From Haloferax marisrubri (GTDB lineage: Archaea; Halobacteriota; Halobacteria; Halobacteriales; Haloferacaceae), in the NCBI RefSeq assembly GCF_001469875.2, contig NZ_LOPW02000022.1, forward strand, positions 197,829-261,828: 64,000 nucleotides of DNA, written 5' to 3'. Positions 46,495 through 63,738 of the stretch are shown piece by piece. Under the pieces are notes generated by a model. It made no database searches, was not told the origin of the DNA, and was given only the letters and a program-made list of their open reading frames with translations. Position numbers and translations under genes: made by a program. The stretch's first letter is position 1. Every line of letters begins with the position of its first letter.

Positions 46495-47015
46495 GCGAAA
46501 CTGACTCGCCCGAGATAGTCCGACGGAAGTTCACTCTGACCAAGTCATTGGATGAACAACTCGTATCGGCAGCCGCAGAGAGCTACGGCGGAAATGTCAG
46601 TCTGTTCTTGAGACAGGCCATCTCGGATCATCAAAAGACGTTGGATGGTGATGGCCGACTAGCCTTGCAGCGTTTAGAACGGGAAGTGGGAGAGGTCCGG
46701 GAACAGGCGATTCGAATTTCGGCGGAGTCCAAGAGATTGAACGATTCCATCAAGCGGTTATTGTATCAACTGGAACAGCAGGCGAACGGGGTCGAATCGT
46801 TCCCCTCACTGGACGCCCGGATTGTTTTTGATTTGCTCGTTAACAGCGAAGATCCGCTAGGAGTGGAAGATATCATTGAGGAGTTGGGTATGAGGCCGCT
46901 TCGCGTACGGAGAGCACTTGAGGGACTCTGGGAAACCCATGCTATCCAGACGACAGATGGGGTTTCATTTGAGGTATCGTCCGGGAGTCTCGGAGCTACT
47001 GAGGACAGCCAATGA
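46491..47015 (+). CDS. Ribbon-helix-helix protein with coiled coil and C-terminal winged-helix-like region
   Basis: The 174-residue protein starts with an RHH-like segment (IVRRKFTLTKSLDEQLVSAA, GNVSLFLRQAISDHQ). A coiled coil follows (REVGEVREQAIRISAESKRL), then a C-terminal region like a small winged helix (ARIVFDLLVNSEDPLGVEDI). It is likely a DNA-binding accessory of the adjacent integrase, such as an excisionase or recombination directionality or copy-control factor (inference). Overlaps both neighbours by 4 bases. Confidence 0.65.
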   Translation: MSETDSPEIVRRKFTLTKSLDEQLVSAAAESYGGNVSLFLRQAISDHQKTLDGDGRLALQRLEREVGEVREQAIRISAESKRLNDSIKRLLYQLEQQANGVESFPSLDARIVFDLLVNSEDPLGVEDIIEELGMRPLRVRRALEGLWETHAIQTTDGVSFEVSSGSLGATEDSQ

Positions 47016-48007
47016 CCAGTGATTCTCCCACTTCAGACGATGTTGTGAACGAGTACCTCGAGCATCATGTCGGGTTGATTCTCACTGAGCAGACTGGACG
47101 GAAGTATGAGGGAGTACTCCGAGAGTACTGTCGGTTCTTAGAGTCCCACGATACGTCAGTTCTAGACGCAGATTACAGAGACGTCAACAGGTTCATTGAG
47201 GGCTGCGTTCGGAGAGGGAACCGTATCTCAACGCTAGAAAATAAGTTGAGTATTGTCAATGGGTTGTACAAATATATCCATCTCTGGAGCGACTTCGGTG
47301 ATAAGCTAGAACTCAATCCACTGCGCTTACAGCTTATCGACACGAAGCAGTACAATACGCCACCCGAAATCAAGCGAGTGGCTCTGAGCCGGAGGGAGTT
47401 GCGTCTCCTGTTCCGGGAGATCAAAGACTATCGAAATCGGCTGTTGGTGATCACTGGTGTGGAAACGGGGTTACGGAATTCCGACTTACGGACAATCCTA
47501 ATCGACGATGTGGACCTGAATCAGCGTGAGATTCGGGTACCTCATCCGAAATTTTCGAAGCCGTACACGGTCCCGATGAGCGATGAGCTAGCTGATGAGT
47601 TGAAGCTGTGGATAACAGAAGGGAGATCTGGTTACGCTATCTCTGAGTACAGCCCGTACTTGTTTCCAGGCCGTCGGTCAGAAAAGCTGGAGTCAAATAA
47701 TGCAGTAAATCAAATAATTGACCGTGCTGCGAAGAGTGCTGGAATCCAAGGAGTAATCGGTACCACAGCACTCACAGAGGCTCAGAGACGAGTCCTCAAT
47801 ACTGACAAGACAGAACGACAGTGGAAGCGCGTAACCGCCCACACACTACGGCATACATTTCTCACGTTGCTTGACGATGCAGGGGTGCCGCTACCATACC
47901 GCCAGTTGGTTGCTAATCATTCGTCCCCACAGACTACCCAACACTACACCCACTCGGAAGAAAACGCGTTCAAGGAGATCAGACGACGCTTCACTCCACC
48001 GAGGTAG
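47012..48007 (+). CDS. Tyrosine recombinase / integrase 1
   Basis: The 331-residue phage-type integrase has an N-terminal SAM-like core-binding domain (residues about 10-105). The catalytic domain carries TGVETGLRNSDLR (Arg), HTLRHTFLTLL (His-x-x-Arg), LVANHSSPQTTQHYTHSEE with the nucleophile Tyr. The long TALTEAQRRVLNTDKTERQW insert is shared with integrase 2 in this window. It closes the four-gene operon and probably integrates at a tRNA gene. Confidence 0.93.
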   Translation: MTSDSPTSDDVVNEYLEHHVGLILTEQTGRKYEGVLREYCRFLESHDTSVLDADYRDVNRFIEGCVRRGNRISTLENKLSIVNGLYKYIHLWSDFGDKLELNPLRLQLIDTKQYNTPPEIKRVALSRRELRLLFREIKDYRNRLLVITGVETGLRNSDLRTILIDDVDLNQREIRVPHPKFSKPYTVPMSDELADELKLWITEGRSGYAISEYSPYLFPGRRSEKLESNNAVNQIIDRAAKSAGIQGVIGTTALTEAQRRVLNTDKTERQWKRVTAHTLRHTFLTLLDDAGVPLPYRQLVANHSSPQTTQHYTHSEENAFKEIRRRFTPPR

Positions 48008-48188: not shown

Positions 48189-50516
48189 TTAGAGCGAGCG
48201 AACAGAGAGCCGCCGTTCGAACTCGTCAGCGGTCATGTCCTGAAGCTCTTGCTTCACGCGTTCTCGATCCGAGGCTAGACCGAACTCATCGGGTCTGGAT
48301 TCGAAGTTGAGAGTCTCAAGGATATCCACCAAGATGGACACACGTCGATCTTTCATTGACTCGTAGGTCCAGAACGAGTTGAAGTATTCGCGCAGGTCCT
48401 CTTCAATCGTTACTGTCTCGTCTCCGTCCGGTTCTTCGTGAGATTGTAGAAGTCGCTCAAGCTTCGTGCGATTAATTGGCCCCTCGTCTGCGGTGAAGTA
48501 GCGGTTCGGGTAGATGCTGGCGAAGTCTTTCGACTTCTTGTGATACTTTGGGAGTTTCTCGACGAGGGGATTATTGCTTGCGCCAATATTGTCCTTACCT
48601 CGCAGCAGTAGGAAGTTCCCGATATCGTTGATGAACTGCTGCGTGATGAACTCCGACATATTCTCTTTCAGCCGCGCTTCTTGTTCGTTAAGATTGTCAC
48701 GCTGTTCAAGATCAATGTAGTTCTGGATACTCAACGTGAGTTCGGTGTCGTCTCGGTTGAGTCGGAAGAACTCCCGTAACCATGTCGCGTCCCCCGAGCT
48801 TGAGAAGGGCTTCTGGGGGAGAACATGTTCTAGATGGAGGTTGTCAGCGTTCAGCCGCCGTTCAACATACTCGTCTTCGTTTTTGAAGTGATTGTTTGTA
48901 ATCCGCCTAAAGAGGAGTTTCGCGGTACTCGTACTCCCGAGTTTCGACTGGGCGAGACCCACAAGGAACTGTTCACCGAACAGCTCAGCGTTAGACGATC
49001 GGGTTTCGTTGATGAGATACTCTATTGATGCTGCGTATGGATCACTGACGATATCCTCACTACTTGGCGAGAGACCGAGATTGTGGACTGCCTCAATGAA
49101 GACATTCTGGAAAATGTTCGGGCGTTCGGACATCAGCAGCCGACGGAAATTAAGCTTCTCGACAGTGTCGAGAAATTGGTAAAAACGGTCAGCTTGCGAC
49201 TCCGACGACGCGTCGGTGTAGTAGTAGAGGGCTAATGTGAGTGGCCGCCACTGATCCATTTGCTGGCTGTTCAGTCGGAGGAGAATGTCTTGACACTCTT
49301 CTCGGTGTCCCGCGAGTTTTAGATCGGCGGCTTCAAGATTAGGATCGGTGATGTGTTGGTAATACTCCACAAGTTCATACGCGTCGCCCACAAATTCCTT
49401 GGCTTCGTCAAGATCGTAGAGCCGTGGTCGCACCTTGGAGTCGATTGCACGCGTGGCGAAAGCATTGGTGAGATTATTGCGTGCACCGCCGATTTGTTCG
49501 ATTGCGTCGTCAACGATACTCAAGTAGACAGAGAGGTATTCGATAATCTGGTCTTCATCCGTCGCAAATTCAACGACAATCTGTTCCCACTTCTCGTCAA
49601 CGTACTCCTCTTGATAGTCGGTATCGAAGAATGCGTTTACCACTGCGGCCCTGATACGATCAATCTCGTCGAGATCGACGCCTCTGTTGTTGAGGACCTC
49701 GAAGATCTGCATACGAAAGTCGGAGTCAGAATCTCGAATAACGTACTCACCGATGTAGTATGAGTGCTGGATATAATTGCTTACGTTCAATAGTGCTCGA
49801 ACAGCGGAATCGGCGTCATCCGCGCCGTCCACAAGCTTACTGATTCGTTCTTGGAAGAATTCGTATGTGGTCAGAAGTCTATCATGAGAACTGAATAACT
49901 TGAAGAACGCTGACCGTCTCAGGCCGCTAGTGTCCAGTTCGTTGAGTTCGTTGTCATCGATACCGAACCGATCAAGACAAGTTGAGACTTGGATTGCGTT
50001 GCTATTGTTTCCGTGAATATCGAAGTCAGCAGTGTCAGTCAGGTAGGCCACTTTCTGCTTCGGGTCTCGAATCAACGCTTGGAAGAACGCTTCGTCGTGT
50101 TTGTTCAGCGTGAGCCGAGGGGACGGGGTGGAAATAGATCCGGGATCGTAGAGGATGTGCTCAAGTTGTCGCTCGCCGCGATGTTTGAATTCGATAAGGG
50201 CGTTGTCCGAAATCTCATCGCGGTCAATCGCTTGGAGGTGCTCATTCAGGACTTTAAATAGGATGTGAACAGTCGTGAGCCGCTGTTGTCCATCGATGAC
50301 CTCGTAATCTCGCGTCTTTCCACGGACGGCAAAGTACATTGAACTGAAGAAGACATCGGAGACTTGCTTCTCGTCATTGAGTTCCGCAGTGACGAATTTT
50401 TCCACGTCTGACCAAAACTGTTTGAGTTGCTTCGTCTCCCAAGAATACGTCCGTTGATAGTCTGGTATATTGAAATTCTGATCGGTGAGAACACTCCAAA
50501 GCTTCTGTTTGTTCAT
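48189..50516 (-). CDS. GmrSD-like DUF262/DUF1524 protein (type IV restriction-like nuclease)
   Basis: About 775 residues from ATG 50516. The N-terminal DUF262 has IPDYQRTYSW and VIDGQQRLTTVHILFKVL, where the DGQQR motif is the ParB/NTPase-like catalytic loop. A long helical middle follows. The DUF1524 region has LHLEHVLPQ at about residue 561, the His-containing HNH-type nuclease motif. Fused GmrSD proteins cut modified foreign DNA; SspE/BrxU relatives act with DNA modification systems. It lies beside, and divergent from, a methylase-containing module. The 63 codons upstream of the chosen start overlap promoter DNA. Confidence 0.83.
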   Translation of the reverse strand: MNKQKLWSVLTDQNFNIPDYQRTYSWETKQLKQFWSDVEKFVTAELNDEKQVSDVFFSSMYFAVRGKTRDYEVIDGQQRLTTVHILFKVLNEHLQAIDRDEISDNALIEFKHRGERQLEHILYDPGSISTPSPRLTLNKHDEAFFQALIRDPKQKVAYLTDTADFDIHGNNSNAIQVSTCLDRFGIDDNELNELDTSGLRRSAFFKLFSSHDRLLTTYEFFQERISKLVDGADDADSAVRALLNVSNYIQHSYYIGEYVIRDSDSDFRMQIFEVLNNRGVDLDEIDRIRAAVVNAFFDTDYQEEYVDEKWEQIVVEFATDEDQIIEYLSVYLSIVDDAIEQIGGARNNLTNAFATRAIDSKVRPRLYDLDEAKEFVGDAYELVEYYQHITDPNLEAADLKLAGHREECQDILLRLNSQQMDQWRPLTLALYYYTDASSESQADRFYQFLDTVEKLNFRRLLMSERPNIFQNVFIEAVHNLGLSPSSEDIVSDPYAASIEYLINETRSSNAELFGEQFLVGLAQSKLGSTSTAKLLFRRITNNHFKNEDEYVERRLNADNLHLEHVLPQKPFSSSGDATWLREFFRLNRDDTELTLSIQNYIDLEQRDNLNEQEARLKENMSEFITQQFINDIGNFLLLRGKDNIGASNNPLVEKLPKYHKKSKDFASIYPNRYFTADEGPINRTKLERLLQSHEEPDGDETVTIEEDLREYFNSFWTYESMKDRRVSILVDILETLNFESRPDEFGLASDRERVKQELQDMTADEFERRLSVRSL

Positions 50517-50705
50517 CTCGAAGTCATCCCCCGCAGTTCGACGAATTACGCGGTCGTAAGAGACGTCTTCGTCAATCTCGAGAATATCGTCACCGTAGTT
50601 TATATATCTCGAATATAAGTTTGCGTGATTTTCTGTCACATAACCGTCGTCATCTGCACGACATTTAGTGCTACCGACCACACGAACATGAGACGGTGGT
50701 AGCAT

Positions 50706-51151
50706 CTACTGGAGTGTGGGGACTGTCGAAGTCCGACCAGACAGTTCTTCATGAGCCTAACGCTCAGGGGTGGAGTGAGCCGTGGAGAAAATCTCGCCGG
50801 CTCTGGTGAATCGCCATATGGAGGTTGATTTCACTGTGTTGCGGCACGCTTGATGTTGTGAACGACACATTTTACGACGAGTTCACGAAATTCTCGGCAC
50901 CACGTTCGCGCTCGCACAGCGTCGCCGTGCGTGCGCTTAATCGACGAGAAGACGGTCTCACACATCGACCGTTGACGGTAGCGAGGCTCATCGACTCACT
51001 AGCACTTTCGGGGAGTTTGGTCGGGGTAGCTGTTTAGGTCGGTTTTTAAAACTTATCTGTTGGCTAACCTTTAAGTGTCGCTTGGGTATACCGTCAGTGT
51101 AGAAAGAATGTACCGCGGGGAACACGGGGATGCCCCAAGGAACGCTCACCC
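50706..51151. other. Intergenic region with IS remnant and promoter of the DUF499 operon
   Basis: This region separates two divergent modules. It holds the IS5-family transposase tail at 50831-51003, an AT-rich promoter segment at 51035-51090 with TTTTTAAAA and CCTTTAAG, and a small hairpin GGGG-ATG-CCCC type at about 51127-51137, just before the first gene of the operon. Confidence 0.5.
50831..51003 (-). pseudogene. C-terminal remnant of an IS5-family (ISH-type) transposase
   Basis: Translating the minus strand from about 51000 gives DEPRYRQRSMCETVFSSIKR, then THGDAVRARTW, then a tail ending VHNIKRAATQ and a TGA at 50831. This is the end of the DDE domain of haloarchaeal IS5-family transposases (R-x2-R-x2-ETVFSSIKR). 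An in-frame stop lies directly upstream and nothing of the rest of the transposase is present. It is a decayed copy left between two modules. Confidence 0.75.
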
Positions 51152-51280
51152 ATGCCAACAATCAAAGTCAACGACTGGACGAAAGACCAACTTGAAGACA
51201 TCAAAGACGAGGAAGACCACTCCTCGTTCGACTCGGTCATCAAATCGCTCCTCAAGGAACGCCGGAGCAACGATCAATGA
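51152..51280 (+). CDS. Small RHH-like protein (42 aa), first gene of the DUF499 operon
   Basis: The 42-codon frame from ATG 51152 reads MPTIKVNDWTKDQLEDIKDE and ends LKERRSNDQ. It starts with a beta-strand-like TIKVN and continues with two helices, the layout of minimal haloarchaeal ribbon-helix-helix proteins. Its stop overlaps the ATPase start by 4 bases (ATGA), which supports it as a real gene. It may autoregulate the defence operon (inference). Confidence 0.6.
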   Translation: MPTIKVNDWTKDQLEDIKDEEDHSSFDSVIKSLLKERRSNDQ

Positions 51281-54200
51281 GTAAACAACAGACCTACCCA
51301 ACAGTATTCGACGCCTGCAAGCCTCGAGACGACGTCCTCGAAGGCGAACTCGGAGAAGATCAGTTCGCTGCAAACCTCGCCTCTGTCGCATTCGACGAAG
51401 ATAGCGCTGCTTCAGTCTATCGCGACCCGTCGACCTTCTTTGACAGCACCTATCCCACAGAAGGGCTTGAGGAACTACTCACCACACTCACCAGCCGCTT
51501 CCTCTACACCACCGGACGCGACCCAGAATACAAAGCTAGCATCCTCTGTCTTGACACGACCTTCGGTGGTGGGAAAACTCACGACCTCATCGCGTCCTAC
51601 CATCTCGCAAAACACCCGGCGGGTATCTCCGACCTCCACCGCCATCTTGCAGACCCAGACCTAGCAGATGCCTACGAGCACGCCGTCACCGACGGTCTTT
51701 CTCCCCGAACCGCAGTGTTCGTTGGTGGCTACGTTGACGCGCAGAACGCGAAGTGTAGCAACGACCCTGACGCCCCCGAAACTAACACGATGTGGGGCGA
51801 AATCGCCTACCAGTTGTACGGACACGAAGGGTACGAACAAATCCGTGAAAAGTACGACGAAACAGGAAGCTCTCCCGGTGAGAACACGCTTCAGGACCTG
51901 TTCGCACTCTCCGACGACCCAGTCCTCATCCTAATCGACGAACTGGCACAGTACCTCGAGGACGCATCCAGTGTCAGCGTCACCGATACGACCCTCAGTA
52001 ACCAAACTCTGAGCTTCGTCAAATCGCTGCTGGAGACGGCTTCAAGCACCCCACACGTCAACATCGTCTACAGTATCGCCGACACTGCGTTCACCGATGA
52101 AGCCGAAACCATCCGGCGAGAAATCAAAGAACTGGATTCCATCGAACAACGGCAGCGTCGCACCATCACCCCGACAGGCTCGTCAGAAGTCAGCTCAGTC
52201 CTCCAACACAGGCTTTTCGACGAGATAGACCAGGAGGCATCAAAGAACGTCGCCGACGCCTACTACGAATACTACCGTGACGTAGACCGAGGCCTCCCGC
52301 AAAACGTTCAGGAACCCGCCTACCGTGACCGGTTGGAATCGGACTACCCCCTTCACCCATCGATCGTCGATACTCTCACGCAGAAAATCGACTCCATCCA
52401 AGACTTCCAGAAAACTCGTGACGCGCTTCGCCTCCTCGCACGAGGCATCTACTACCTCTGGGAGAACGGGTCGAAGAACCAAGACCGGCACTTCCTCCGC
52501 CTCTACGATCTCACGCCGGCAGATGACGCTCCGAGTGGGAGTATTCGGACAAAGCTCAGTGACTCACTGTTCGAAGCAGTTGACCTCAGCGCAGCTGTCT
52601 CTGCTGACATCTATTCAAGTGACGGCACCGCGCACGGACAGCGAGAGGACGGACGGTGGCTCGACAAAGACCTCCCGGCTATCGGCTCCCACATCACCAT
52701 CGTAACACTGTGGAATAGCCTCGCAGTCGGTGAACGGGCAATCGGGCTAACCCGCGACGAACTCTACGAAGCGTTAGCCCATCCCGGAATTAGTTTCGAC
52801 CACTACGATTCCGCCCTGAAGAACCTGACCGGGAATGATCCTCAGTCTGGGTGTTACTACCTCTACGACCGCGACCGCCTCAAGTTCAAATCCGAAGCCA
52901 AGCTACTCTACATTATCGACCAGTACACCCGCAACACGCCGCGGAAAGAGGCGAAAGACCGATTCGAAGGGCGGCTCCGCCGAGAAATCGGAACCGGAGG
53001 TCTCCAGACTGTCCCTACAACCAACCCAGACGACTCGTTCCCTGAAGAGCCCGCAGACGTCAGCGACAACGCTGACCAACCAACACTCGTCATCCCTCAC
53101 TTCGATTCAGTCACTGTGTCGGACGGGGGTGAAGAGATACCGAGCAAAATCAACACGCTGTACAACAAGACCGCCAGCAGTCACGGCGCTCCGACGCAGA
53201 CGCGGAAGTACAAGAACTACGTACTCTTCCTCGTCCCGGACGCTGAACTCGTATCCACCGGCATCGAAAAAGCACGGCGGATGGAAGGGATTGAGCGGTT
53301 GCTGAACGATTCCGAAAAGAGCGCCGAACTCACCGACGATCAGTTCGAGGACCTCCGAGAGCGACGTAAAACTCACCGCGGTCTTCTCGGTGAACAGGTG
53401 CGGAACGTCTATCGGCACCTGTTCTACCCCGACCGAGGCGGCCTCGAGCATGTCGCTATCACAGCGGTCGATGCGAATGGCGACTCCTCATTCGTGAAAG
53501 CGGTTGAGGCTACGCTCGACGACCGCATCCTCCGAGACGACAGTGACGCTCGTGGTGAGGTCTGGTTCAAGCAGCGACTCTGGCAGTCAGCGAAGAACCG
53601 GATGTCGACCCAACAGCTGAAAGAACAGTTCGCCAAGAAGCCGGGTCTTCCGTTCCTCTTCAGCACGAAGCCCCTCCGGAAGACGGTCAGCCGGATGGTC
53701 ACTGAAGCCGGCTACGTCTACTGGGACAACACGACCCAGACCGCGTACTGGACGGGGAGTGAGGAACCAGATAACTGGACTCACGACGGCGCCCTCACGG
53801 ACTCGGAAGACGTGAAAACATCCATCAAAACAAACGATGTCCGAATCGGGGACGACTATTACCTGTACAAAGACATCGAGTCCCTCGTCGACCAGGAATC
53901 GATAACCCCGCCCACCACCGGCACCGATGACGAGACCGGTGGGAGCGGTGGGACTGGTAGTACCGGCGGGACAGACGAGACCGGTGGAACGGACGATGGT
54001 ACGGGAGGTACCGACGACGGAGACACAGTAGAAACGTGGTCGCACACGTCGAACACTGCCAGTGCCAAGCGAGCGTTCAGTGAAGTCCGAGAAGAGGCAC
54101 TCGCGAAAGCAGGGAACAACGCCACTCCGACGGTCGAATCCGTATCCATCGAGGTGAGTGGTGACGAGGTGCTGAAACACGCGTTCTTCCTCGCACAGAC

Positions 54201-54519
54201 CACGCTCTCCGACTACACGGACCACACCACAGTCTCGATGATCTACCGTGCTCGTGGCGGTGATGACGAGTTCAAAGCGAATTTCAACGGGTCGCTCGCG
54301 TCGTTCAACACGCTGAATCAGCGTCTCGAAGGGTTCGCCGACAAAAGCGGCCAGCGGAACGTAGACCTCACGTTCACGCTCTCACTCCCGTCACCCGAGG
54401 AGATTAGCACCGAAGACGAGACGGACGTCTTGGCTGTATTGCGTGACAAACTCAGCGGGACAGATGTCACGCTGCAAGTAGAGGGAAGCGGTGACATCGA
54501 CACGGAGGACGACGCATGA
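51277..54519 (+). CDS. DUF499-family AAA+ ATPase of a defence module
   Basis: The 1080-residue protein has the P-loop DTTFGGGKTHDLI (residues about 93-104) and Walker B PVLILIDELAQYLED (about 213-227), then long alpha-helical regions. This matches large DUF499 ATPases found in defence islands, related to BrxC/PglY. A Gly/Thr/Asp low-complexity linker (about 882-915) separates a C-terminal domain. It is probably the energy-dependent sensor or loader for the methylase and helicase encoded downstream. Overlaps both neighbours by 4 bases. Confidence 0.85.
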   Translation: MSKQQTYPTVFDACKPRDDVLEGELGEDQFAANLASVAFDEDSAASVYRDPSTFFDSTYPTEGLEELLTTLTSRFLYTTGRDPEYKASILCLDTTFGGGKTHDLIASYHLAKHPAGISDLHRHLADPDLADAYEHAVTDGLSPRTAVFVGGYVDAQNAKCSNDPDAPETNTMWGEIAYQLYGHEGYEQIREKYDETGSSPGENTLQDLFALSDDPVLILIDELAQYLEDASSVSVTDTTLSNQTLSFVKSLLETASSTPHVNIVYSIADTAFTDEAETIRREIKELDSIEQRQRRTITPTGSSEVSSVLQHRLFDEIDQEASKNVADAYYEYYRDVDRGLPQNVQEPAYRDRLESDYPLHPSIVDTLTQKIDSIQDFQKTRDALRLLARGIYYLWENGSKNQDRHFLRLYDLTPADDAPSGSIRTKLSDSLFEAVDLSAAVSADIYSSDGTAHGQREDGRWLDKDLPAIGSHITIVTLWNSLAVGERAIGLTRDELYEALAHPGISFDHYDSALKNLTGNDPQSGCYYLYDRDRLKFKSEAKLLYIIDQYTRNTPRKEAKDRFEGRLRREIGTGGLQTVPTTNPDDSFPEEPADVSDNADQPTLVIPHFDSVTVSDGGEEIPSKINTLYNKTASSHGAPTQTRKYKNYVLFLVPDAELVSTGIEKARRMEGIERLLNDSEKSAELTDDQFEDLRERRKTHRGLLGEQVRNVYRHLFYPDRGGLEHVAITAVDANGDSSFVKAVEATLDDRILRDDSDARGEVWFKQRLWQSAKNRMSTQQLKEQFAKKPGLPFLFSTKPLRKTVSRMVTEAGYVYWDNTTQTAYWTGSEEPDNWTHDGALTDSEDVKTSIKTNDVRIGDDYYLYKDIESLVDQESITPPTTGTDDETGGSGGTGSTGGTDETGGTDDGTGGTDDGDTVETWSHTSNTASAKRAFSEVREEALAKAGNNATPTVESVSIEVSGDEVLKHAFFLAQTTLSDYTDHTTVSMIYRARGGDDEFKANFNGSLASFNTLNQRLEGFADKSGQRNVDLTFTLSLPSPEEISTEDETDVLAVLRDKLSGTDVTLQVEGSGDIDTEDDA

Positions 54520-55115
54520 GCGTTCCTACTCAGCGTGACCAAGAAGCACAGGCGTTTGCATTCGGGTCCAGCGTGTACGGTGGCCGCCCAACGTTCGGCC
54601 TCACCCGTCGTGTCGAAGACGGTGACCCAGTGATTCGGCTCTACGAACTCCTCCCGAGAGAGCAAGCCGAATCCCGCCGACGTCGGCTGGAACGCGTAGG
54701 ACGACACGTCGTCATCACCCCGATCGAAGAGACGTTCCAGTCCCTCCCGGACGGAGGCACGTACACGTGGGACGACTGGGATGCTATCAAGATCGGCCAG
54801 CTCCGCGGAGCCCGACTCAACGCAGTGCTGTCCGTCGTTCGTGAAGCACTGAACGATGCAGAACAACCCCACGACCCAATCACGTCCACCGGAGAAGGCG
54901 AAGTGTTCATCTCAGAAGTCTCGGGAGTTCGCTTGTCTCTGGCCTTCCTCGGGGTGAAACAGATGCAGCGCGTCGACCGTATCCGAGCACTGGTTCGGGG
55001 TGTCTCACGAATGAGCACCGAGGAATGCTACTACTGGTACGCGAAGTGCCGGTCCCCGAGTAGCCCGAACGGCGTCCAGTCGCTACGCGTGCTTCTCACA
55101 AATCACATCGAATAA
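54516..55115 (+). CDS. Small conserved protein between DUF499 ATPase and DUF1156 methylase (199 aa)
   Basis: The 199-residue soluble protein starts MSVPTQRDQEAQAFAFGSSV, has DDWDAIKIGQLRGARLNAV and VSGVRLSLAFLGVKQMQRVD, and ends ECYYWYAKCRSP. I do not recognise a catalytic motif. The position between ATPase and methylase is where DUF3780 or similar small proteins occur in related modules, so it may be an adaptor (inference). ATGA overlap with the ATPase; the methylase follows after 4 bases. Confidence 0.6.
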   Translation: MSVPTQRDQEAQAFAFGSSVYGGRPTFGLTRRVEDGDPVIRLYELLPREQAESRRRRLERVGRHVVITPIEETFQSLPDGGTYTWDDWDAIKIGQLRGARLNAVLSVVREALNDAEQPHDPITSTGEGEVFISEVSGVRLSLAFLGVKQMQRVDRIRALVRGVSRMSTEECYYWYAKCRSPSSPNGVQSLRVLLTNHIE

Positions 55116-55119
55116 CACT

Positions 55120-58014
55120 ATGTCTGACCACCAACCCCTCCAAGACGACGAATCGGACCTCAAGCGCCTCGCAATCGAAGGGAAGCTCCCACTGAAGACG
55201 GTCGGGATTGAGAACCTGAAAGAGGCGAACCCGCAGCACATGCCGCCGCATCGGTACATCCATCCGTGGTTCGCTCGCCGCCCCACCCCGGCGTCCAGAC
55301 TCGCGATTCTCGCGTCCGTCCTCCCAGAGGGTGTGGACTCTGACACCCTGCTCAAGTGGATGCAGATCGGTCCCGACGATGTTGAATCCGGCATCGCGGA
55401 CTACGTCGAAGAAAAGAAACAGAACGAGGGTGACCGAGACGGGACGCTCGGGGAGCACTACGGATACCCACGCCCGTTCCGGAATTCACCGTCGGACGAG
55501 GAGCGAGAAGACCTCCACGAGCGACTTACGGACTTCTGGGATGGTGACCTCCCGACAGTGCTCGACCCGACTGCCGGCGGCGGCGTCATCCCGTTCGAAT
55601 CACTCCGATATGACCTCCCCACCGTCGCGAACGAACTCAACCCGATTCCATGGCTCATGCTGGAGCTCATGCTGGAACAAGCCCCAGCTGTCGGCTCGCT
55701 CTCCGAAGAACTCAACAAATGGGGAGATCGCATCGATGAAACCGCAGCCGAGAACCTCGAAGAATACTTCCCCTCGGCAGCACCGGGACAGACGCCCTCG
55801 CACTACGCAGGCACGTATTCGGTAACGTGCCCGGATTGCGGAGCGGATATTCCCCTCGTCAAGAAGTGGTGGCTGAAAAAGAAATCCTCGTCGAAGGGCA
55901 TCGCTGCTCGCCCCCACATCTCCGAGGAAGGAGACATCTCGTACTCGTGCGTTAAACTCCCAGACCAAGTCGAAAAATCGGAATTCAACCCGCAAGACGG
56001 CCCCAAATCTCGCAGTGGTGCTGAGTGCATCCGCTGTGGTGTCGTCATGGACGATAGCGCAGTACAGGAATGTCTCGCAGAGGGAGACTTCGAGTACGAA
56101 GTCTACGGCGTGAAATACGTCAAGGAACGCGGTTCCTCCGGGTGGCGTGCCCCCACTAGTGACGACCGGGAAGCACTCAAGAAAGCCGAGGAGCGCGTTT
56201 CGACCGATATCGACCTCCACTCGCTGCTTCAGGTTGATCGGTACATCGGCGATGAAGATCGCGCCGGCCCGTACGGAGTGACGCAGTGGCGAGACGCGTT
56301 CACTCCACGGCAACTCATCACGCTCTACGAATACCAGAACGCGTTCAAAGAGAATGAAGAAGAGATCAGGGACGCATATGAAGACGAGACGAAGGTTGAG
56401 GCGCTGCTTATCCTCCTTTCGCTCACCGCGAGCAAGGCAGTAGACCGGAACAGTCGTTTCTCTCCGTTAGACACTGGGAAGGGGTATCCGGCGAACGCAC
56501 TCGGCGGGAAGCACTTTACCCTCCAGTGGGCATACGTCGACAACAACCTCGCGGCCGGGAATCAAAGTTACAACGACACTCTCAGACGGATTCGAGACTC
56601 CTACGAAGAAATCCAGAGCTATCTTGAAGGAGTGGGTGAAGACAGAGCGACCGTACTCCAGGGAGATGCCGCGAACCTCGACGTTGAGGACGATTCGGTC
56701 CAGGCAGTCGTCATTGACCCGCCATACTACGACAGCATCATCTATTCAGAGCTGTCCGACATGTGTTACGTGTGGCTTCGTGAGTACCTGAGCGAGACGT
56801 ATCCCTTCGCTTTCGCCGGAGAACTCTCGGAGAAGGGAAGTGAAGCAGTCGCGAACGTCGCGAAGTTCAAAGACGTCGCAGGCAACTCAAAGTCGAAAAA
56901 GAGCCTCGCCGAAGAGGACTACGAATCGAAGATGGCGGACATCTTCAGTGAACTCTACCGCGTCCTCGAACCCGGTGGAGTGATGACCGTCATGTTCACT
57001 CACAAAGAGGCAAGCGCCTGGGACACGCTCACGATGGCGCTCATCCGGTCGGGGTTCACCGTCACCAGCACTCACCCGATCACGAGCGAGATGCCACAGC
57101 GCACTGACACACGAGGTGGTGGGTCTGCGGACAGCACGCTCCTCCTCACCGGCCGGAAACCAGTCGACGAGGACGACGAAAACCCCGAACCGACGCTGTG
57201 GAGTGACGTCCAATCTGACACCCGTGAGGTCGCACAGGAAGCAGCCCGCGACTTGCTGGACTCGGGGATGAGTCTCACCAAGACCGACGTCATCATCAGT
57301 GCATTCGGCCCGACTCTCCGCGTCTTCGCTGACAGCTACCCCGTCGTCGATCCACAGGGTAACGAAATCAAGCCGCGAAAAGCACTGGAGGAGGCACGTG
57401 AGGCCGTCGCCCGTGTCCTCATCGACAGATACCTCACTCTCTCCGAAGGGAAAATCGAGTCCCTCGACAGCATCACCGAATGGTATCTGCTCTCCTGGCT
57501 CATCTACGGAGCAGACACGTTCCCCTACGACGAAGGGTACCAGCTCGGTCTCGGGCTAGGTGTCAACATCGACGACATCAAACGCAGCACCAAGGTGTGG
57601 CGGAAGAAGCGAGGAGACATTCAACTGCGTTCCCACGACGGCCGCGTTGCGAACATCAACAGTAGCTCGCCCAGTCGTTCGAAGCCCATCGACCCCGAAG
57701 ACTTCTCGTTCAGCTCCGCGCTTGATAAAGTCCACGCCGCACTCCACGTCTACGACACAAGCGGAGAGAAAGCCGCGTGGGAGTGGCTCAAGGAACGGCG
57801 CTGCGACTCCGATCAGACGTTCAAGTCAACGCTAAGCGGTCTTCTCCAAGTCCTCCCGAAGGACCACGACGATTGGGAGATTGCTCGCGACCTCTCAGTC
57901 GGAGATACAGGAGAATACCTCCAACTCGATCTCTCTAACAACGTGTTCAACGACGAGGACGACGCGGACGATGACGACGACAAGCAGGGAACGTTCGGAG
58001 ACTTCGACAACTAA
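55120..58014 (+). CDS. DUF1156 DNA adenine methylase with zinc ribbon (COG1743 type)
   Basis: The 964-residue protein begins with the DUF1156 motif HPWFARRPTPASRLAILASV. SAM-binding motif I is LDPTAGGGVIPFESLRY (about residue 147). Zinc-ribbon knuckles CPDCG (about 237) and CIRCG (about 303) come next. The amino-methyltransferase motif IV reads VIDPPYYDSIIYSEL (about 533), where DPPY is the base-flipping catalytic motif for adenine N6 or cytosine N4. It probably marks host DNA so that the rest of the module acts on unmodified invaders, or the reverse. Confidence 0.88.
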   Translation: MSDHQPLQDDESDLKRLAIEGKLPLKTVGIENLKEANPQHMPPHRYIHPWFARRPTPASRLAILASVLPEGVDSDTLLKWMQIGPDDVESGIADYVEEKKQNEGDRDGTLGEHYGYPRPFRNSPSDEEREDLHERLTDFWDGDLPTVLDPTAGGGVIPFESLRYDLPTVANELNPIPWLMLELMLEQAPAVGSLSEELNKWGDRIDETAAENLEEYFPSAAPGQTPSHYAGTYSVTCPDCGADIPLVKKWWLKKKSSSKGIAARPHISEEGDISYSCVKLPDQVEKSEFNPQDGPKSRSGAECIRCGVVMDDSAVQECLAEGDFEYEVYGVKYVKERGSSGWRAPTSDDREALKKAEERVSTDIDLHSLLQVDRYIGDEDRAGPYGVTQWRDAFTPRQLITLYEYQNAFKENEEEIRDAYEDETKVEALLILLSLTASKAVDRNSRFSPLDTGKGYPANALGGKHFTLQWAYVDNNLAAGNQSYNDTLRRIRDSYEEIQSYLEGVGEDRATVLQGDAANLDVEDDSVQAVVIDPPYYDSIIYSELSDMCYVWLREYLSETYPFAFAGELSEKGSEAVANVAKFKDVAGNSKSKKSLAEEDYESKMADIFSELYRVLEPGGVMTVMFTHKEASAWDTLTMALIRSGFTVTSTHPITSEMPQRTDTRGGGSADSTLLLTGRKPVDEDDENPEPTLWSDVQSDTREVAQEAARDLLDSGMSLTKTDVIISAFGPTLRVFADSYPVVDPQGNEIKPRKALEEAREAVARVLIDRYLTLSEGKIESLDSITEWYLLSWLIYGADTFPYDEGYQLGLGLGVNIDDIKRSTKVWRKKRGDIQLRSHDGRVANINSSSPSRSKPIDPEDFSFSSALDKVHAALHVYDTSGEKAAWEWLKERRCDSDQTFKSTLSGLLQVLPKDHDDWEIARDLSVGDTGEYLQLDLSNNVFNDEDDADDDDDKQGTFGDFDN

Positions 58015-58035
58015 CCACTCCCCACGATTTTCACC

Positions 58036-61000
58036 ATGCTCTCGCTGAAACACTACGACTGGCGACCTGTCTACGAGAGTCAGCCCGGCGACAGCGTTGA
58101 CTATCTCGTCGAAGAGTTCTACATTCCGGCACTGGAGCGGTGCCGCCGATATGACCGGATTGCCGGGTACTTCAACAGCGGGGCATTCGCGACGGCCGCG
58201 ACTGGCATTGAGTCGTTCATCGAGAACGATGGGAAGATGCGCCTGATTGTCGGGGTCGAACTTCAGGAACATGACCGTCCAGTACTGGAGGTGCTGGAAG
58301 ACGGACTCAAAGACCGCCTCACAGACTTAGACAATGAAATTTTGGACAAACGTCTCCAGTTACTCGCGTGGCTACTCCAAGAAGACCGATTAGAGATTCG
58401 GGTCGCGAAACCTAAACACGGGAATTGGGGTATCTTCCACCCGAAGGTGGGGATCTTCTACGACGAGGACGAGAATTCCCTATCGTTTGAAGGGAGTATC
58501 AACGAAACTGAGAGCGGTTGGTCACACAACTACGAGCGATTCAAAGTCCACCGATCGTGGCGGACTGAAGAAGCGGCTTACGTCAACGCGGACAAAGAAT
58601 CGTTCACACAATTGTGGAACGACGAACACGACTACGTCAAGGTCTACGACCTCAGTGATGCACTGAAAGAAGGAATAATCAAGTGGAAATCGCCGGACTC
58701 GGCGTATGAAGCGGAAGAAATCGCCGAACAGCTCCGGAACGGAACACCGAGTGCTGGGACAGACGACACCGGTCTTGCCGCGTTGTCCGACGAAGCACGG
58801 GTGAACGCATCTGCGAGCATCCTCCGTGACGGAGGGATGATGCCACAGGGCCTTCACGTCGCAAAGGAAGCCAGCACTATCGACCCGTGGCCACATCAGC
58901 GAGTCGTCTCTGATACGGCCGTTAACACGTATCCACAGGGGTTCCTCTTCTGCGATGAGGTTGGCCTCGGGAAGACGATTGAGATTGGCTACACGTTATC
59001 TCGACTCGGCCACACCAACGAGATTCAGAACTCGCTTCTCTTAGTCCCGGCAGGCCTGACTCGCCAGTGGCAAGAGGAACTTTGGGAGAAGTTCAATCTC
59101 TACGCGTATCGGTACGACCGTGAAACGAGTGGAGACTACGTCTTCACCGACCCCTTCGGAGAAACACACGCACCACCGGAAGCGTCAGAACTTGACCTCA
59201 GTGAAACACGCCAAGCAGAGGAATGGGCAGAGAGTCCAATCTGGCGATTCGTCCATCAACAGCAACGCGAGTCGGATCAACCGGTAGTCGTCATTATGTC
59301 GTGGCACACCGCTCGCCTCCCGAGGTACTGGGACGAAGTTGCCCCTGGAGACGAGCACTCGCTCCGAACTCGGAAGACAATTCCTGCTAGCAGTCGCGGC
59401 CGGGAACAGACTGGAAGAGACGGTGTTTGGGATAGTGTCGTCGTCGACGAGGCACACAATGCCCGTCGAACGACCCGTCTCTACCGACTCTTGGAGAATC
59501 TCAGACCCAACACGCAGTGTTACTACCTGCTGAGTGCAACTCCGATGCAGCTCCACCATTCAGAGCTGTACGATCTTCTCACCCTACTCGAGTTGCCGTC
59601 GCAGTGGGACCATCGAAAGCGATTCACCGAATTCTTCCAAACACGGCGCGGCCTCAAGACCGTCTTGAGTGAGGAAGGTCCGTCTCCTCCAACGAAGGAT
59701 ATCGATACCCAGCAGACGTTGGACGGCTCGTATCAGGCCGGGTTGGACACATCAACATCAACCTCGGAGTTAGTATTCCTCAATCTGAGAGAGGAATTGG
59801 ACTTGGAAGACGAAGCCATCGCGCGTCAGCGACTGCTCACGGCGTGCGAACTGGCTCGATCATACGGTGCCGCATACGACGGGTACATTGATACTGTAGA
59901 TGAGGTAATCCAGGAGGCAAACCTCGACGAATTCCTCGGCGAAGATCGTCAAGTGAAGGAACTCTTGTACCACGAAGAGGCTGTGCGGCAGGAGCCGTGG
60001 ATTGTGAACTCAAAAGATCGTCGTCATGCGATTGAAGAACTGTCTCTTGAGGGGTGGGAAGTGCTGCAACAGGTATTCTCCAAGGCCACACCGGTGAATG
60101 CACTCCTTCACCGGAACACGAGAGATACGCTGCGAAAGTACCACCAAGCTGGCCTCTTGGATGAGACGGTTGCCGACCGTGATCCCGAGCGAAAGGACAT
60201 CCCCCTGTCCAATGAAGCGTCTGCGGTGTACGAGCGTATCGACGACTACACCACGAAGTTCTACAAGAAGTCACAGGAAGCTGCTGACCAACAGACGCAG
60301 GCGCTCGGGTTCGTGATGACAACGTATCGTGAGCGCCTCACCAGTAGCGTGGCTGCGATTCAGAAGAGTCTGGAGAGGCGGTTAGAGAAGCTAGAAACTC
60401 AGCGGCAAGTTGTCGAACAACACTCCGGGCTTGGTGAGGGCAAGTCGCGAACAGCCGCAGAGAACCTGTCCGGGTTCTCTGAACAGGAGCAGCTGGAACT
60501 TGCTGAATTGGAAGACGGTGGAGAGAGTGTCCTCGGTGTTGATATTGCCGAAGTAGTGCCCGGAGGGTCTGAAGAAGGCCTTCGATTCCTTAACGAGGAG
60601 ATCGAGGAACTACGCTCGTTCATTGAGGACGTGCGGAAGATTGGTCGTGATCCGAAGATTGAGCAGTTACGGAGCGACCTGCTTGAGCTCGACGAGCAGG
60701 GCCACGACCGAGTTTTAGTGTTTACTCAGTACACGGACACGCTCGACTACGTGCGGAACCACCTCAAGCAGACCCACGGCGAAAACGTCGCGACGTACTC
60801 CGGCCGGGGTGGGGAGATGTACGATGCTGACACTGATGAGTGGTACGGGGTTAGTAAAGAGGAGGTCAAGCGCGCATTTGCAGCCGAAGAGGACGGCGTT
60901 GACGTACTAGTCGGGACAGAAGCGGCTAGTGAAGGACTGAATTTGCAAGAATGCGGTGCCGTCATCAATTACGACCTACCATGGAACCCAATGAAGGTCG

Positions 61001-61959
61001 AACAGCGGATTGGTCGGGTTGACCGAATCGGGCAAGAGCACTCCGAAATTACCATCTACCACTACGTCTATGAGGAGACGATCGAGAACGACATCTACGA
61101 TGCCCTGGACGAGCGCATCGGGATGTTTGAAGACGTAGTCGGTGACTTACAGCCGATTCTCGCAGGGGTTAGTAAGAGCATCAAGTCGGCAACGTTGGAA
61201 GGCGACACGTCCGCGGCTGAATCGCTATCCGCGCAGATGGCAGACGCGGACACTGACGACACCGTGGAAGTCGAGGACGCACTGACTGGTGTTGAGACGA
61301 CTGAAACCGAGGAAGTCCTGAAGAACGCCCGTCTTGAAGCGTGGGAGTCGTTCAGACATCCAGATGTCGACGCTGTCGGGGAAGCCGAACACGAGAACGT
61401 CCCGTTCACCAGTAACGCCGTAGAGGCGTTCTTCACGGGCGCTGTCGCCGAGCATATCGACGAGTGTGAGTTGGTCTCCGTCACTGATCTCGACGACGCC
61501 GACGCGAATTTACGCCGTGGTTTGGCGGACTCTATCTATCGTCTCTCACTCCCTAATGAAGTCGAGGTCAGACATCCACCGGAACCCGGTACGGTTGCTG
61601 CTGGGCTCTGTGATGGTGAGAACTCGGTTGCAGTCACTTTCACGGGTGAATGCGTAGACGAGTACCCGTCACTCCGGTTTTTGCTCCCAGGCGATCCAAT
61701 CTTCTCACAGCTCGTTGAACTGGTGCTGGAGGAGTTGGCCGATACCGGAGTCGACCGAATATACGTTGGGCGAAATATCGATGATTCGGAGGCGTGCTGT
61801 AGTAGGGACGCCTCTCACGAGGTTGTCGTGGGCGTCAGAACCAACGACGGATCGCGGCTCATTCTTGAGGACTCTGGTGAACTCATCGAACTCGATGCGG
61901 GTAGTGACGAACTTGCAGAGTGGTGTGAGCAATTCGTGAGAAATCGAATCAAGTCGTAA
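58036..61959 (+). CDS. PLD-nuclease-like / SNF2-family helicase (DrmD-like)
   Basis: The 1307-residue protein has an N-terminal phospholipase-D-like domain with IFHPKVGIFY and a following EGSINET (residues about 134-162), one HKD-type half site. The SNF2 helicase core follows, with DEVGLGKTIE (motif I, about 310), VVVDEAHNAR (motif II, about 471) and the second RecA domain with VEQRIGRVDRIGQ (motif VI, near 995). Similar helicases occur in DISARM class 1 (DrmD) and other methylase-linked systems. Last gene of the operon, 21 bases after the methylase. Confidence 0.88.
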   Translation: MLSLKHYDWRPVYESQPGDSVDYLVEEFYIPALERCRRYDRIAGYFNSGAFATAATGIESFIENDGKMRLIVGVELQEHDRPVLEVLEDGLKDRLTDLDNEILDKRLQLLAWLLQEDRLEIRVAKPKHGNWGIFHPKVGIFYDEDENSLSFEGSINETESGWSHNYERFKVHRSWRTEEAAYVNADKESFTQLWNDEHDYVKVYDLSDALKEGIIKWKSPDSAYEAEEIAEQLRNGTPSAGTDDTGLAALSDEARVNASASILRDGGMMPQGLHVAKEASTIDPWPHQRVVSDTAVNTYPQGFLFCDEVGLGKTIEIGYTLSRLGHTNEIQNSLLLVPAGLTRQWQEELWEKFNLYAYRYDRETSGDYVFTDPFGETHAPPEASELDLSETRQAEEWAESPIWRFVHQQQRESDQPVVVIMSWHTARLPRYWDEVAPGDEHSLRTRKTIPASSRGREQTGRDGVWDSVVVDEAHNARRTTRLYRLLENLRPNTQCYYLLSATPMQLHHSELYDLLTLLELPSQWDHRKRFTEFFQTRRGLKTVLSEEGPSPPTKDIDTQQTLDGSYQAGLDTSTSTSELVFLNLREELDLEDEAIARQRLLTACELARSYGAAYDGYIDTVDEVIQEANLDEFLGEDRQVKELLYHEEAVRQEPWIVNSKDRRHAIEELSLEGWEVLQQVFSKATPVNALLHRNTRDTLRKYHQAGLLDETVADRDPERKDIPLSNEASAVYERIDDYTTKFYKKSQEAADQQTQALGFVMTTYRERLTSSVAAIQKSLERRLEKLETQRQVVEQHSGLGEGKSRTAAENLSGFSEQEQLELAELEDGGESVLGVDIAEVVPGGSEEGLRFLNEEIEELRSFIEDVRKIGRDPKIEQLRSDLLELDEQGHDRVLVFTQYTDTLDYVRNHLKQTHGENVATYSGRGGEMYDADTDEWYGVSKEEVKRAFAAEEDGVDVLVGTEAASEGLNLQECGAVINYDLPWNPMKVEQRIGRVDRIGQEHSEITIYHYVYEETIENDIYDALDERIGMFEDVVGDLQPILAGVSKSIKSATLEGDTSAAESLSAQMADADTDDTVEVEDALTGVETTETEEVLKNARLEAWESFRHPDVDAVGEAEHENVPFTSNAVEAFFTGAVAEHIDECELVSVTDLDDADANLRRGLADSIYRLSLPNEVEVRHPPEPGTVAAGLCDGENSVAVTFTGECVDEYPSLRFLLPGDPIFSQLVELVLEELADTGVDRIYVGRNIDDSEACCSRDASHEVVVGVRTNDGSRLILEDSGELIELDAGSDELAEWCEQFVRNRIKS

Positions 61960-62688: not shown

Positions 62689-63738
62689 CTACCTACCTAT
62701 GAGATCACGGATGAGGTCGTTGTAATTCTCCTCATCGTGATCATAGTTGTCCTTCGTGACGCTGGGGTGACTGTGGTTCATCGCCTTGCTACGCGTCTCC
62801 AGCGAGAGTCCGCTCTTCTTCATTTTGTGGTTGAACGTGTGCCGGAGAGCGTGAGCAGTGACCTTGTGCATGACCTTGGTGTCGTTGTCGGTGTTCATCA
62901 CTTCCTTTTGTCGCTCGGTCAGGTAGATCTCACCGAGCGTATCCTGAATCCCCGCTTCTTCGGCGGCATCTTTGAGGAATCTACTCAGTCCCTCGTTCGT
63001 TTCGATCTTTCCTCCCCCGTTCTCGCTGATGAAGAGATAGTCGCACTCTTCTGCTCCGGGCCGTGCGCTACGCTCCAGTTCGATCCATTGCCGGATGTTC
63101 ACTGCGAGCGCTTCGCTGATTGCGACCGTGTGCGACTTCCCTCCCTTTCCATCTCTCACGTGGAGTGTCAGTTCGTCAAGGTCGACGTCACTGATTTTTA
63201 ACTCCCGGATTTCTGCGTTTCGCAGGCCGGTTTCTGCTCCGATTGTCACGATCAGCTGGTTCCGGTGCGTTTCTATCGCGTCGTACAGCTTGTTCAGTTC
63301 GTCTTCCGTCAGGGGGACCCGGTTCATTGACTCCCGGGTCTTGTACCGGAACCCTCTAATCGGGATATCCCCGACGAATTCCGGCTTGATCTTGAGCTCA
63401 TCCGCTCGGTCAGAGTGCGCATGAAGGAACTTGTAAAGCGCTTTCACTGCGCTTCTCTTGTTCCGCACCGTCTCCATTCGATTACCTTTGACAGAGCACG
63501 ACGCAAGGTAATCGATAATGTCCTGCTTCTCGGCCCCGATGACGGAGGTTCCCTGCTCGTCGAGGAAGGCTGTAAACAGCCGGAGGGTGCAGGCTCGTCT
63601 CCGAGTGGTCGATGGGGCGAGTTTGATTCCGCTTTCTTTCAGGAGATATTCACGGACCTGGGGGTCCGTCACCCCCCATTCGTTTAGCTGTCGTTCTTCG
63701 ACTTGGTCAGGATGGTCGTAAGGGTCGTATCCCGTCAT
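62689..63738 (-). CDS. Tyrosine recombinase / integrase 2
   Basis: The 349-residue integrase has an N-terminal core-binding domain (STTRRRACTLRLFTAFLDEQ) and the catalytic motifs TIGAETGLRNAEIRELKI (Arg), HALRHTFNHKM (His-x-x-Arg), AMNHSHPSVTKDNYDHDEEN (His and nucleophile Tyr). The inserted LTERQKEVMNTDNDTKVMHK is equivalent to the insert in integrase 1, so the two are distant relatives from one haloarchaeal family. It overlaps the upstream HTH gene by 4 bases. Its 3' side faces the palindrome-bearing gap, the usual place of an attP site. Confidence 0.93.
   Translation of the reverse strand: MTGYDPYDHPDQVEERQLNEWGVTDPQVREYLLKESGIKLAPSTTRRRACTLRLFTAFLDEQGTSVIGAEKQDIIDYLASCSVKGNRMETVRNKRSAVKALYKFLHAHSDRADELKIKPEFVGDIPIRGFRYKTRESMNRVPLTEDELNKLYDAIETHRNQLIVTIGAETGLRNAEIRELKISDVDLDELTLHVRDGKGGKSHTVAISEALAVNIRQWIELERSARPGAEECDYLFISENGGGKIETNEGLSRFLKDAAEEAGIQDTLGEIYLTERQKEVMNTDNDTKVMHKVTAHALRHTFNHKMKKSGLSLETRSKAMNHSHPSVTKDNYDHDEENYNDLIRDLIGR

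What the first reader, a model, noticed from the sequence alone, without database searches (positions are those of the whole stretch)
48189..61959. DUF499-DUF1156-helicase operon beside a GmrSD-like nuclease
The module combines a large P-loop ATPase, an unknown 199-residue protein, a zinc-ribbon DNA methylase and a PLD-SNF2 helicase, plus a 42-residue RHH-like first gene. A DUF262/DUF1524 nuclease lies divergently next door. This looks like a modification-based defence system distinct from canonical BREX and DISARM: I see no PglZ, BrxL, DrmA or DrmB. The GmrSD-like protein may be its restriction arm.
Basis: partly seen in the sequence, partly recalled or inferred. Interest (0 to 1): 0.7.

Follow-up and report, generated by a model that had tools for sequence, protein, structure and literature searches.

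The report
DUF7680-type BREX-related phage defence operon
A salt-loving archaeon carries a phage-defence operon of a recently named kind (ATPase, DNA methylase, nuclease-helicase), but it belongs to a separate, apparently undescribed branch, shared with bacteria, that is marked by a small protein for which no paper was found; the GmrSD-like nuclease beside it is an optional neighbour, not a part of it.

Summary
The operon is real and intact: RHH leader (42 aa), DUF499 ATPase, a 199-aa protein (Pfam DUF7680), DUF1156 zinc-ribbon methylase and PLD-SNF2 helicase. It is a DUF499-centred "BREX-related" (BR, alias Hma) system, a kind already published, but it fits none of the three published BR subtypes. 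All 18 DUF7680 loci of relatives and all 46 sufficiently complete named haloarchaeal loci keep the order DUF499-DUF7680-methylase-PLD helicase; seven cyanobacterial and alphaproteobacterial plasmid loci keep it too, sometimes with cargo genes in between. Trees of ATPase, methylase and helicase each put the DUF7680 loci in one group apart from the DUF3780 clade (Type-2 BR). DUF7680 occupies the DUF3780 slot, has the same predicted order of structural elements, and a targeted profile comparison is significant (P about 1e-4; reversed control 0.3-0.7), so it is probably a far-diverged DUF3780. Catalytic residues are conserved; the PLD helicase is the likely restriction arm. The divergent GmrSD-like gene is separated from the operon by an IS5-family scar, and its close homologs in relatives occur without the operon. 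Verdict: new variant of a known kind; GmrSD as the restriction arm is not supported. All function is inferred.

The parts
51152..51280 (+). 42-aa ribbon-helix-helix-like leader protein, probable autoregulator; overlaps the DUF499 start by 4 nt
   Evidence: VAPB_antitox E 2.5e-4, below cut-off; 78% identical leader in 6 of 52 named loci and a 44-aa homolog on H. marismortui pNG600; in L060 and L062 a different ~70-aa leader overlaps DUF499 in the same way
51277..54519 (+). DUF499 AAA+ ATPase (HmaC/BrxC-like)
   Evidence: PF04465 3e-25; PADLOC HmaC 280 bits against 149 for the Type-2 DUF499 model; Walker A/B conserved in 24-25 of 25 clade members
54516..55115 (+). DUF7680 protein, probable far-diverged DUF3780 (candidate adaptor/reader)
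   Evidence: PF24728 8e-34; AlphaFold2 model pLDDT 85.8, pTM 0.83; same slot and same order of elements as DUF3780; hhalign P 1.7e-4 local, 5e-5 global for bacterial DUF7680 against DUF3780
55120..58014 (+). DUF1156 DNA methylase with DPPY motif and zinc ribbon
   Evidence: motif I, DPPY and the four zinc cysteines 25 of 25
58036..61959 (+). PLD nuclease fused to SNF2 helicase, probable restriction effector
   Evidence: H135, K137, G153, S154, N156, E157 and helicase motifs I, II, VI conserved in 25 of 25
48189..50705 (-). GmrSD-like (DUF262/DUF1524) nuclease: divergent neighbour, not part of the core system
   Evidence: (PADLOC HEC-06 3e-42)
50799..50995 (.). fragment of an IS5-family (ISH28-like) insertion element between GmrSD and the operon
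   Evidence: 93.9% identical to an IS5 transposase region of Haloferax alexandrinus, 86% to ISH28
47012..48007 (+). XerA-like tyrosine recombinase flanking the cassette
62689..63738 (-). XerA-like tyrosine recombinase flanking the cassette on the other side

Best explanation
The four-gene core 51277-61959 is a restriction-modification-like phage defence system of the DUF499-centred BREX-related (BR/Hma) kind, in a fourth lineage defined by DUF7680. Proposed working: the DUF1156 methylase marks host DNA at a specific site; the DUF499 ATPase (BrxC-like) assembles on and surveys DNA; DUF7680, a diverged DUF3780, acts as adaptor or mark reader between ATPase/methylase and effector; the PLD-SNF2 protein translocates on unmarked DNA and cuts it. 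The RHH leader represses the operon. The GmrSD-like gene is an independently acquired auxiliary nuclease. Shown here by sequence: gene content, conserved order, co-occurrence, intact catalytic motifs, separate grouping in trees, DUF7680-DUF3780 similarity. Inferred: methylation specificity, self/non-self logic, DNA cleavage, defence itself, the roles of DUF7680 and RHH.
For: Order DUF499-DUF7680-methylase-PLD helicase in 18/18 loci of relatives, 46/46 sufficiently complete named loci, 7 bacterial plasmid loci. Methylases at or above 38% identity to the window's all sit with DUF7680; the remaining DUF1156-type hits, at 37% or less, do not. DUF499, methylase and helicase each put the DUF7680 loci in one group apart from DUF3780 loci (96* for methylase, 92 for DUF499, 84 for helicase). 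Catalytic motifs 24-25 of 25. PADLOC HmaB/HmaC best hits. DUF3780 absent in 98 relatives where DUF7680 occurs in 11.
Against: No experiment. Only two Type-1 sequences in the trees, long branches, midpoint rooting, fast method; group support for the helicase is only 84. Window proteins fall far below the NCBIfam equivalog cut-offs for the DUF499/DUF1156/PLD anti-phage set. The profile comparison is significant only when bacterial DUF7680 are included (haloarchaeal alone P 0.05-0.16).
Confidence: 0.72

Rival explanations
1. An ordinary Type-2 BR system (HKD helicase plus DUF3780) that has merely diverged in halophiles.
For: Same four-gene architecture, PLD-SNF2 helicase, and slot protein homologous to DUF3780.
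Against: DUF7680 loci also occur in non-halophilic Sinorhizobium, Aminobacter, Nostoc and Leptolyngbya; all three core proteins group apart from the DUF3780 clade with long branches; PADLOC scores ATPase and methylase nearer Hma than Type-2.
Confidence: 0.15
2. GmrSD-like nuclease is the restriction arm of this methylation system.
For: It lies next door and has intact DGQQR and HNH-like motifs; GmrSD genes recur near BR systems (PMC12839542; L161 directly downstream, L069 inside the operon).
Against: Close homologs never with the operon in 97 relatives; 2 of 16 genomes with any GmrSD_N gene within 5 kb; opposite strand, IS scar between; the helicase has its own nuclease.
Confidence: 0.06
3. 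The operon modifies or regulates host DNA (for example plasmid maintenance or epigenetic control) rather than defending against phage.
For: Many copies lie on plasmids with toxin-antitoxin cargo; no infection data.
Against: Conserved PLD nuclease-helicase, kinship with Hma and BREX, and a defence-island setting with a short Argonaute system.
Confidence: 0.07

Closest known systems
Type-2 BR system (DUF499, DUF3780, DUF1156 methylase, HKD-SNF2 helicase; PMC12839542)
   Same: Gene order, PLD/HKD nuclease fused to the N-terminus of a SNF2 helicase, small protein in the second slot with the same predicted order of elements
   Different: DUF7680 instead of DUF3780 (no Pfam cross-hit); all three core proteins outside the DUF3780 clade
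Type-1 BR / Hma system (HmaABC; PMC8565338, PMC12839542)
   Same: DUF499 and methylase score best against HmaC and HmaB; DUF499 groups with the Type-1 sequences
   Different: Helicase has an N-terminal PLD, no C-terminal PD-(D/E)XK nuclease domain found; extra DUF7680 gene; only two Type-1 loci were compared
Type-3 BR and BREX (PglZ systems)
   Same: BrxC-like ATPase, methylase with zinc finger, SNF2 helicase
   Different: No PglZ, iSTAND or BrxL found at the locus
GmrSD type IV restriction enzymes / PADLOC HEC-06
   Same: The neighbouring 838-aa protein has both GmrSD domains
   Different: It is a neighbour; co-occurrence with the operon is sporadic
PbeABCD of archaeal phosphorothioation systems
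   Same: PbeA models match the N-terminal PLD half of the helicase (residues 4-355)
   Different: No Dnd or other Pbe proteins found among the ORFs scanned; a DNA methylase instead

Membership tests
DUF499-centred BR (Hma) systems | DUF499 ATPase, DUF1156 N6-type methylase and SNF2 helicase in one operon | tested here: met
Type-2 BR | HKD nuclease fused to SNF2 helicase | tested here: met
   PLDc_2 plus conserved H-x-K and GSxNE in 25/25
Type-2 BR | standalone DUF3780 gene (98% of taxa in PMC12839542) | tested here: not met
   the slot protein hits only DUF7680, not DUF3780; DUF3780 absent in 98 relatives; distant homology of the two supported
Type-2 BR | core proteins fall in the DUF3780-associated clade | tested here: not met
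Type-1 BR / Hma | TUDOR-SNF2 helicase, usually (79%) with C-terminal PD-(D/E)XK nuclease | tested here: not met
   N-terminus is PLD; no nuclease domain at the C-terminus by Pfam, whereas the Type-1 helicase of L036 has NOV_C; TUDOR itself not searched for by structure
Type-3 BR / BREX | PglZ in the locus | tested here: not met
DISARM | DrmB (DUF1998/MZB) with DrmA in the locus | tested here: not met
GmrSD (neighbour protein) | GmrSD_N and GmrSD_C domains | tested here: met
BR systems | protects against phage and methylates host DNA | not testable with these tools
   needs wet-lab or nanopore data

The most novel reading that the evidence does not exclude
A fourth, undescribed BR subtype found in archaea and bacteria, in which a DUF3780-superfamily protein (DUF7680) is the obligate partner of a PLD-SNF2 effector. 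Because the two BR lineages with a PLD helicase both carry such a protein while the other BR lineages looked at mostly do not, the DUF3780/DUF7680 protein may be the adaptor that couples the PLD nuclease to the methylation readout.
Probability: 0.45. Interest if true: 0.6.

Novelty: new variant of a known kind. Interest (0 to 1): 0.5.

Why it matters
The 2026 classification of BR systems recognises three subtypes. This lineage appears to be a fourth, spread over haloarchaea, cyanobacteria and alphaproteobacteria, and would be counted as incomplete Hma or missed by current models. Linking DUF7680 to DUF3780 gives a family with no paper found a place in a machine and makes its role testable by a single-gene deletion in a genetically tractable genus, Haloferax.

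Tried and rejected
First idea that DUF7680 is halophile-specific: rejected, since my haloarchaeal search patterns had missed the bacterial members found through the helicase. Haloarchaea-only profile comparison of DUF7680 with DUF3780: not significant; adding predicted secondary structure did not help. Fold searches of the DUF7680 and DUF3780 models found no convincing match, and the two models could not be superposed with the tools here, so only the order of elements was compared. The 130-aa slot protein in L036 (a Type-1-like locus) as a bridge: sub-threshold (22.3 bits against cut-off 24), with the session's own profiles only 2.5 bits for DUF7680 and 0.8 for DUF3780; left open. Viral contigs: haloarchaeal DUF7680 found none, the mixed set two. 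Att-like direct repeats of at least 16 nt flanking the cassette: none. Broad bacterial genome searches were not possible ('of' takes only genome handles; genome-contig scan already used), so bacterial distribution rests on plasmids.

Full report
OBSERVATION. The genes are present as described and intact. DUF499 overlaps both the RHH leader (51277-51280) and DUF7680 (54516-54519) by 4 nt, the methylase starts 4 nt after DUF7680 and the helicase 21 nt after the methylase, so this reads as one operon. The window is G000:C22:197829-261828. The genome is placed in the same genus as G002; G002:C47 (458,934 bp) appears to be the same contig as NZ_AOLG01000047.1 of Haloferax prahovense (same length and same position of the hit), so the host is probably a Haloferax species (inference). 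The island is 48-59% G+C against 64-72% in the first 36 kb and also holds a short Argonaute with an archaeal Aga-REase protein at 36600-39418.

WHAT IT IS. PADLOC matches DUF499 to HmaC, the methylase to HmaB, and the helicase to PbeA, PLD_Helicase and HmaA. The kind is published: Hma (PMC8565338) and the DUF499-centred BREX-related systems, three subtypes, of PMC12839542. There Type-1 has a TUDOR-SNF2 helicase, mostly with a C-terminal PD-(D/E)XK nuclease; Type-2 an HKD-SNF2 helicase and DUF3780 (98% of taxa); Type-3 PglZ. DUF7680 occurs in no paper of the library; DUF3780 only in that one.

DUF7680 LINEAGE. DUF7680 is found in 11 of 98 relatives. In 18 of 18 such haloarchaeal loci, counting the ones from the phylum-wide search and leaving out the sub-threshold L036, it lies directly after DUF499 and before the methylase; the PLD helicase follows in all but L033, a 4-kb contig that ends inside the methylase. 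Of 52 named loci, 46 hold all four genes and all 46 keep the order; the other six are cut short by contig ends. Conversely, methylases at or above 38% identity to the window's all sit with DUF7680, and the remaining hits at 37% or less (~800-1060 aa frames) do not. Searching plasmids with the helicase led to bacterial loci whose second gene is DUF7680 (E 1e-44 and 8e-46): Sinorhizobium, Aminobacter, Picosynechococcus, Leptolyngbya, two Nostoc and Euhalothece, all in the order DUF499-DUF7680-methylase-helicase, with toxin-antitoxin and other cargo in the cyanobacterial ones. DUF3780 was not found in any of 98 relatives but is found in two other genomes of the phylum and in bacterial plasmids in the same slot.

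TREES. With haloarchaeal and bacterial DUF7680 loci, DUF3780 loci, other haloarchaeal DUF1156 loci and two Type-1 loci, each of the three core proteins needs only one change of label for the DUF7680 group (support 84 helicase, 96 methylase, 92 DUF499), and the DUF3780 group is separate with 100 in all three (larger methylase tree). DUF499 joins the Type-1 pair (95). Limits: two Type-1 rows, long branches, midpoint rooting, fast method.

DUF7680 AND DUF3780. AlphaFold2 models (pLDDT 85.8 and 89.1, pTM 0.83 both) have the same order of main elements: strand, strand, strand with a long helix directly after it, strand with a helix directly after it, then three more helices; DUF7680 has an insertion after its second strand. 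A targeted hhalign comparison gives P 1.7e-4 (local, 90 columns) and 5e-5 (global) for bacterial DUF7680 against 43 DUF3780, 1.8e-3 and 1.4e-4 for all DUF7680, against 0.3-0.7 for reversed DUF3780. It aligns EECYYW with EERWWL and the C-terminal ALRxLL with ALRxAL. Haloarchaeal DUF7680 alone is not significant. I take homology as likely, not proven; no superposition was possible.

MECHANISM. Catalytic residues are conserved over 25 clade members: PLD H135, K137, G153, S154, N156, E157; helicase motifs I, II, VI; methylase DPPY and four zinc cysteines; DUF499 Walker A and B. The PLD-SNF2 protein is therefore the likely nuclease, the methylase the protecting arm, as proposed for BR systems in PMC12839542. 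DUF7680 as adaptor or reader follows the proposal made there for DUF3780 and is inference. The leader gene is interchangeable: an RHH in the window and in the H. marismortui type, a different ~70-aa protein without Pfam match in L060 and L062, each overlapping DUF499 by 4 nt, which fits an autoregulator.

GmrSD. Close homologs of the window's protein occur in 5 of 97 relatives, none of which has the operon. Any GmrSD_N gene lies within 5 kb of the operon in 2 of 16 genomes, the window's and G002; by a rough estimate of mine about 0.1 would be expected by chance, so there is defence-island clustering but no obligate pairing. An IS5-family fragment (50799-50995) separates the two. PMC12839542 already lists GmrSD as an auxiliary effector of BREX/BR systems; PADLOC's HEC-06, which I recall as a 'Hma-embedded candidate', is the best model.

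VERDICT. New variant of a known kind: a DUF7680-marked BR lineage outside the three published subtypes, with a probable DUF3780 homolog in the second slot. Defence itself is inferred from kinship.

Noticed in passing
window 36600-39418 (-): Short prokaryotic Argonaute next to an archaeal Aga-REase protein (SPARDA-like), PADLOC E 3e-144 and 9e-167: the same defence island.
   Followed up: partly
L130, L135 (viral contigs): DUF3780 homologs with no detectable BR core genes in the 16 kb fetched (L131, L132 and L134 not examined one by one): possibly phage-borne copies, for example decoys.
   Followed up: no
L018, L021, L022, L035, L044, L060, L062, L063, L065-L067, L069, L070, L072: In at least 11 of 46 complete named DUF7680 loci extra genes sit between methylase and helicase: a ~320-aa protein without Pfam match, a 738-aa SF1 helicase (L035), a GmrSD-like gene (L069). 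A cargo slot that may hold further effectors.
   Followed up: partly
window 44895-45995 and 47012-48007, 62689-63738: Cas4-like PD-(D/E)XK protein beside a tyrosine recombinase, and a second recombinase on the far side of the cassette; no flanking direct repeats of 16 nt or more seen.
   Followed up: partly
L020/L080 (Haloferacaceae archaeon XH8 plasmid), L076, L075: Copies of the operon broken into several frames, in XH8 beside an intact copy on the same plasmid: decay or assembly error.
   Followed up: no
L036 (G220:C183), 3969-4361: 130-aa protein between DUF499 and methylase of a Type-1-like locus, sub-threshold DUF7680 match (22.3 bits): the slot protein may be older than the PLD helicase.
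   Followed up: partly
L138, L143 (haloarchaea): Other haloarchaeal DUF499-methylase loci with a ~300-aa gene in between that in L143 matches PglZ weakly (E 0.004): perhaps Type-3 BR.
   Followed up: no
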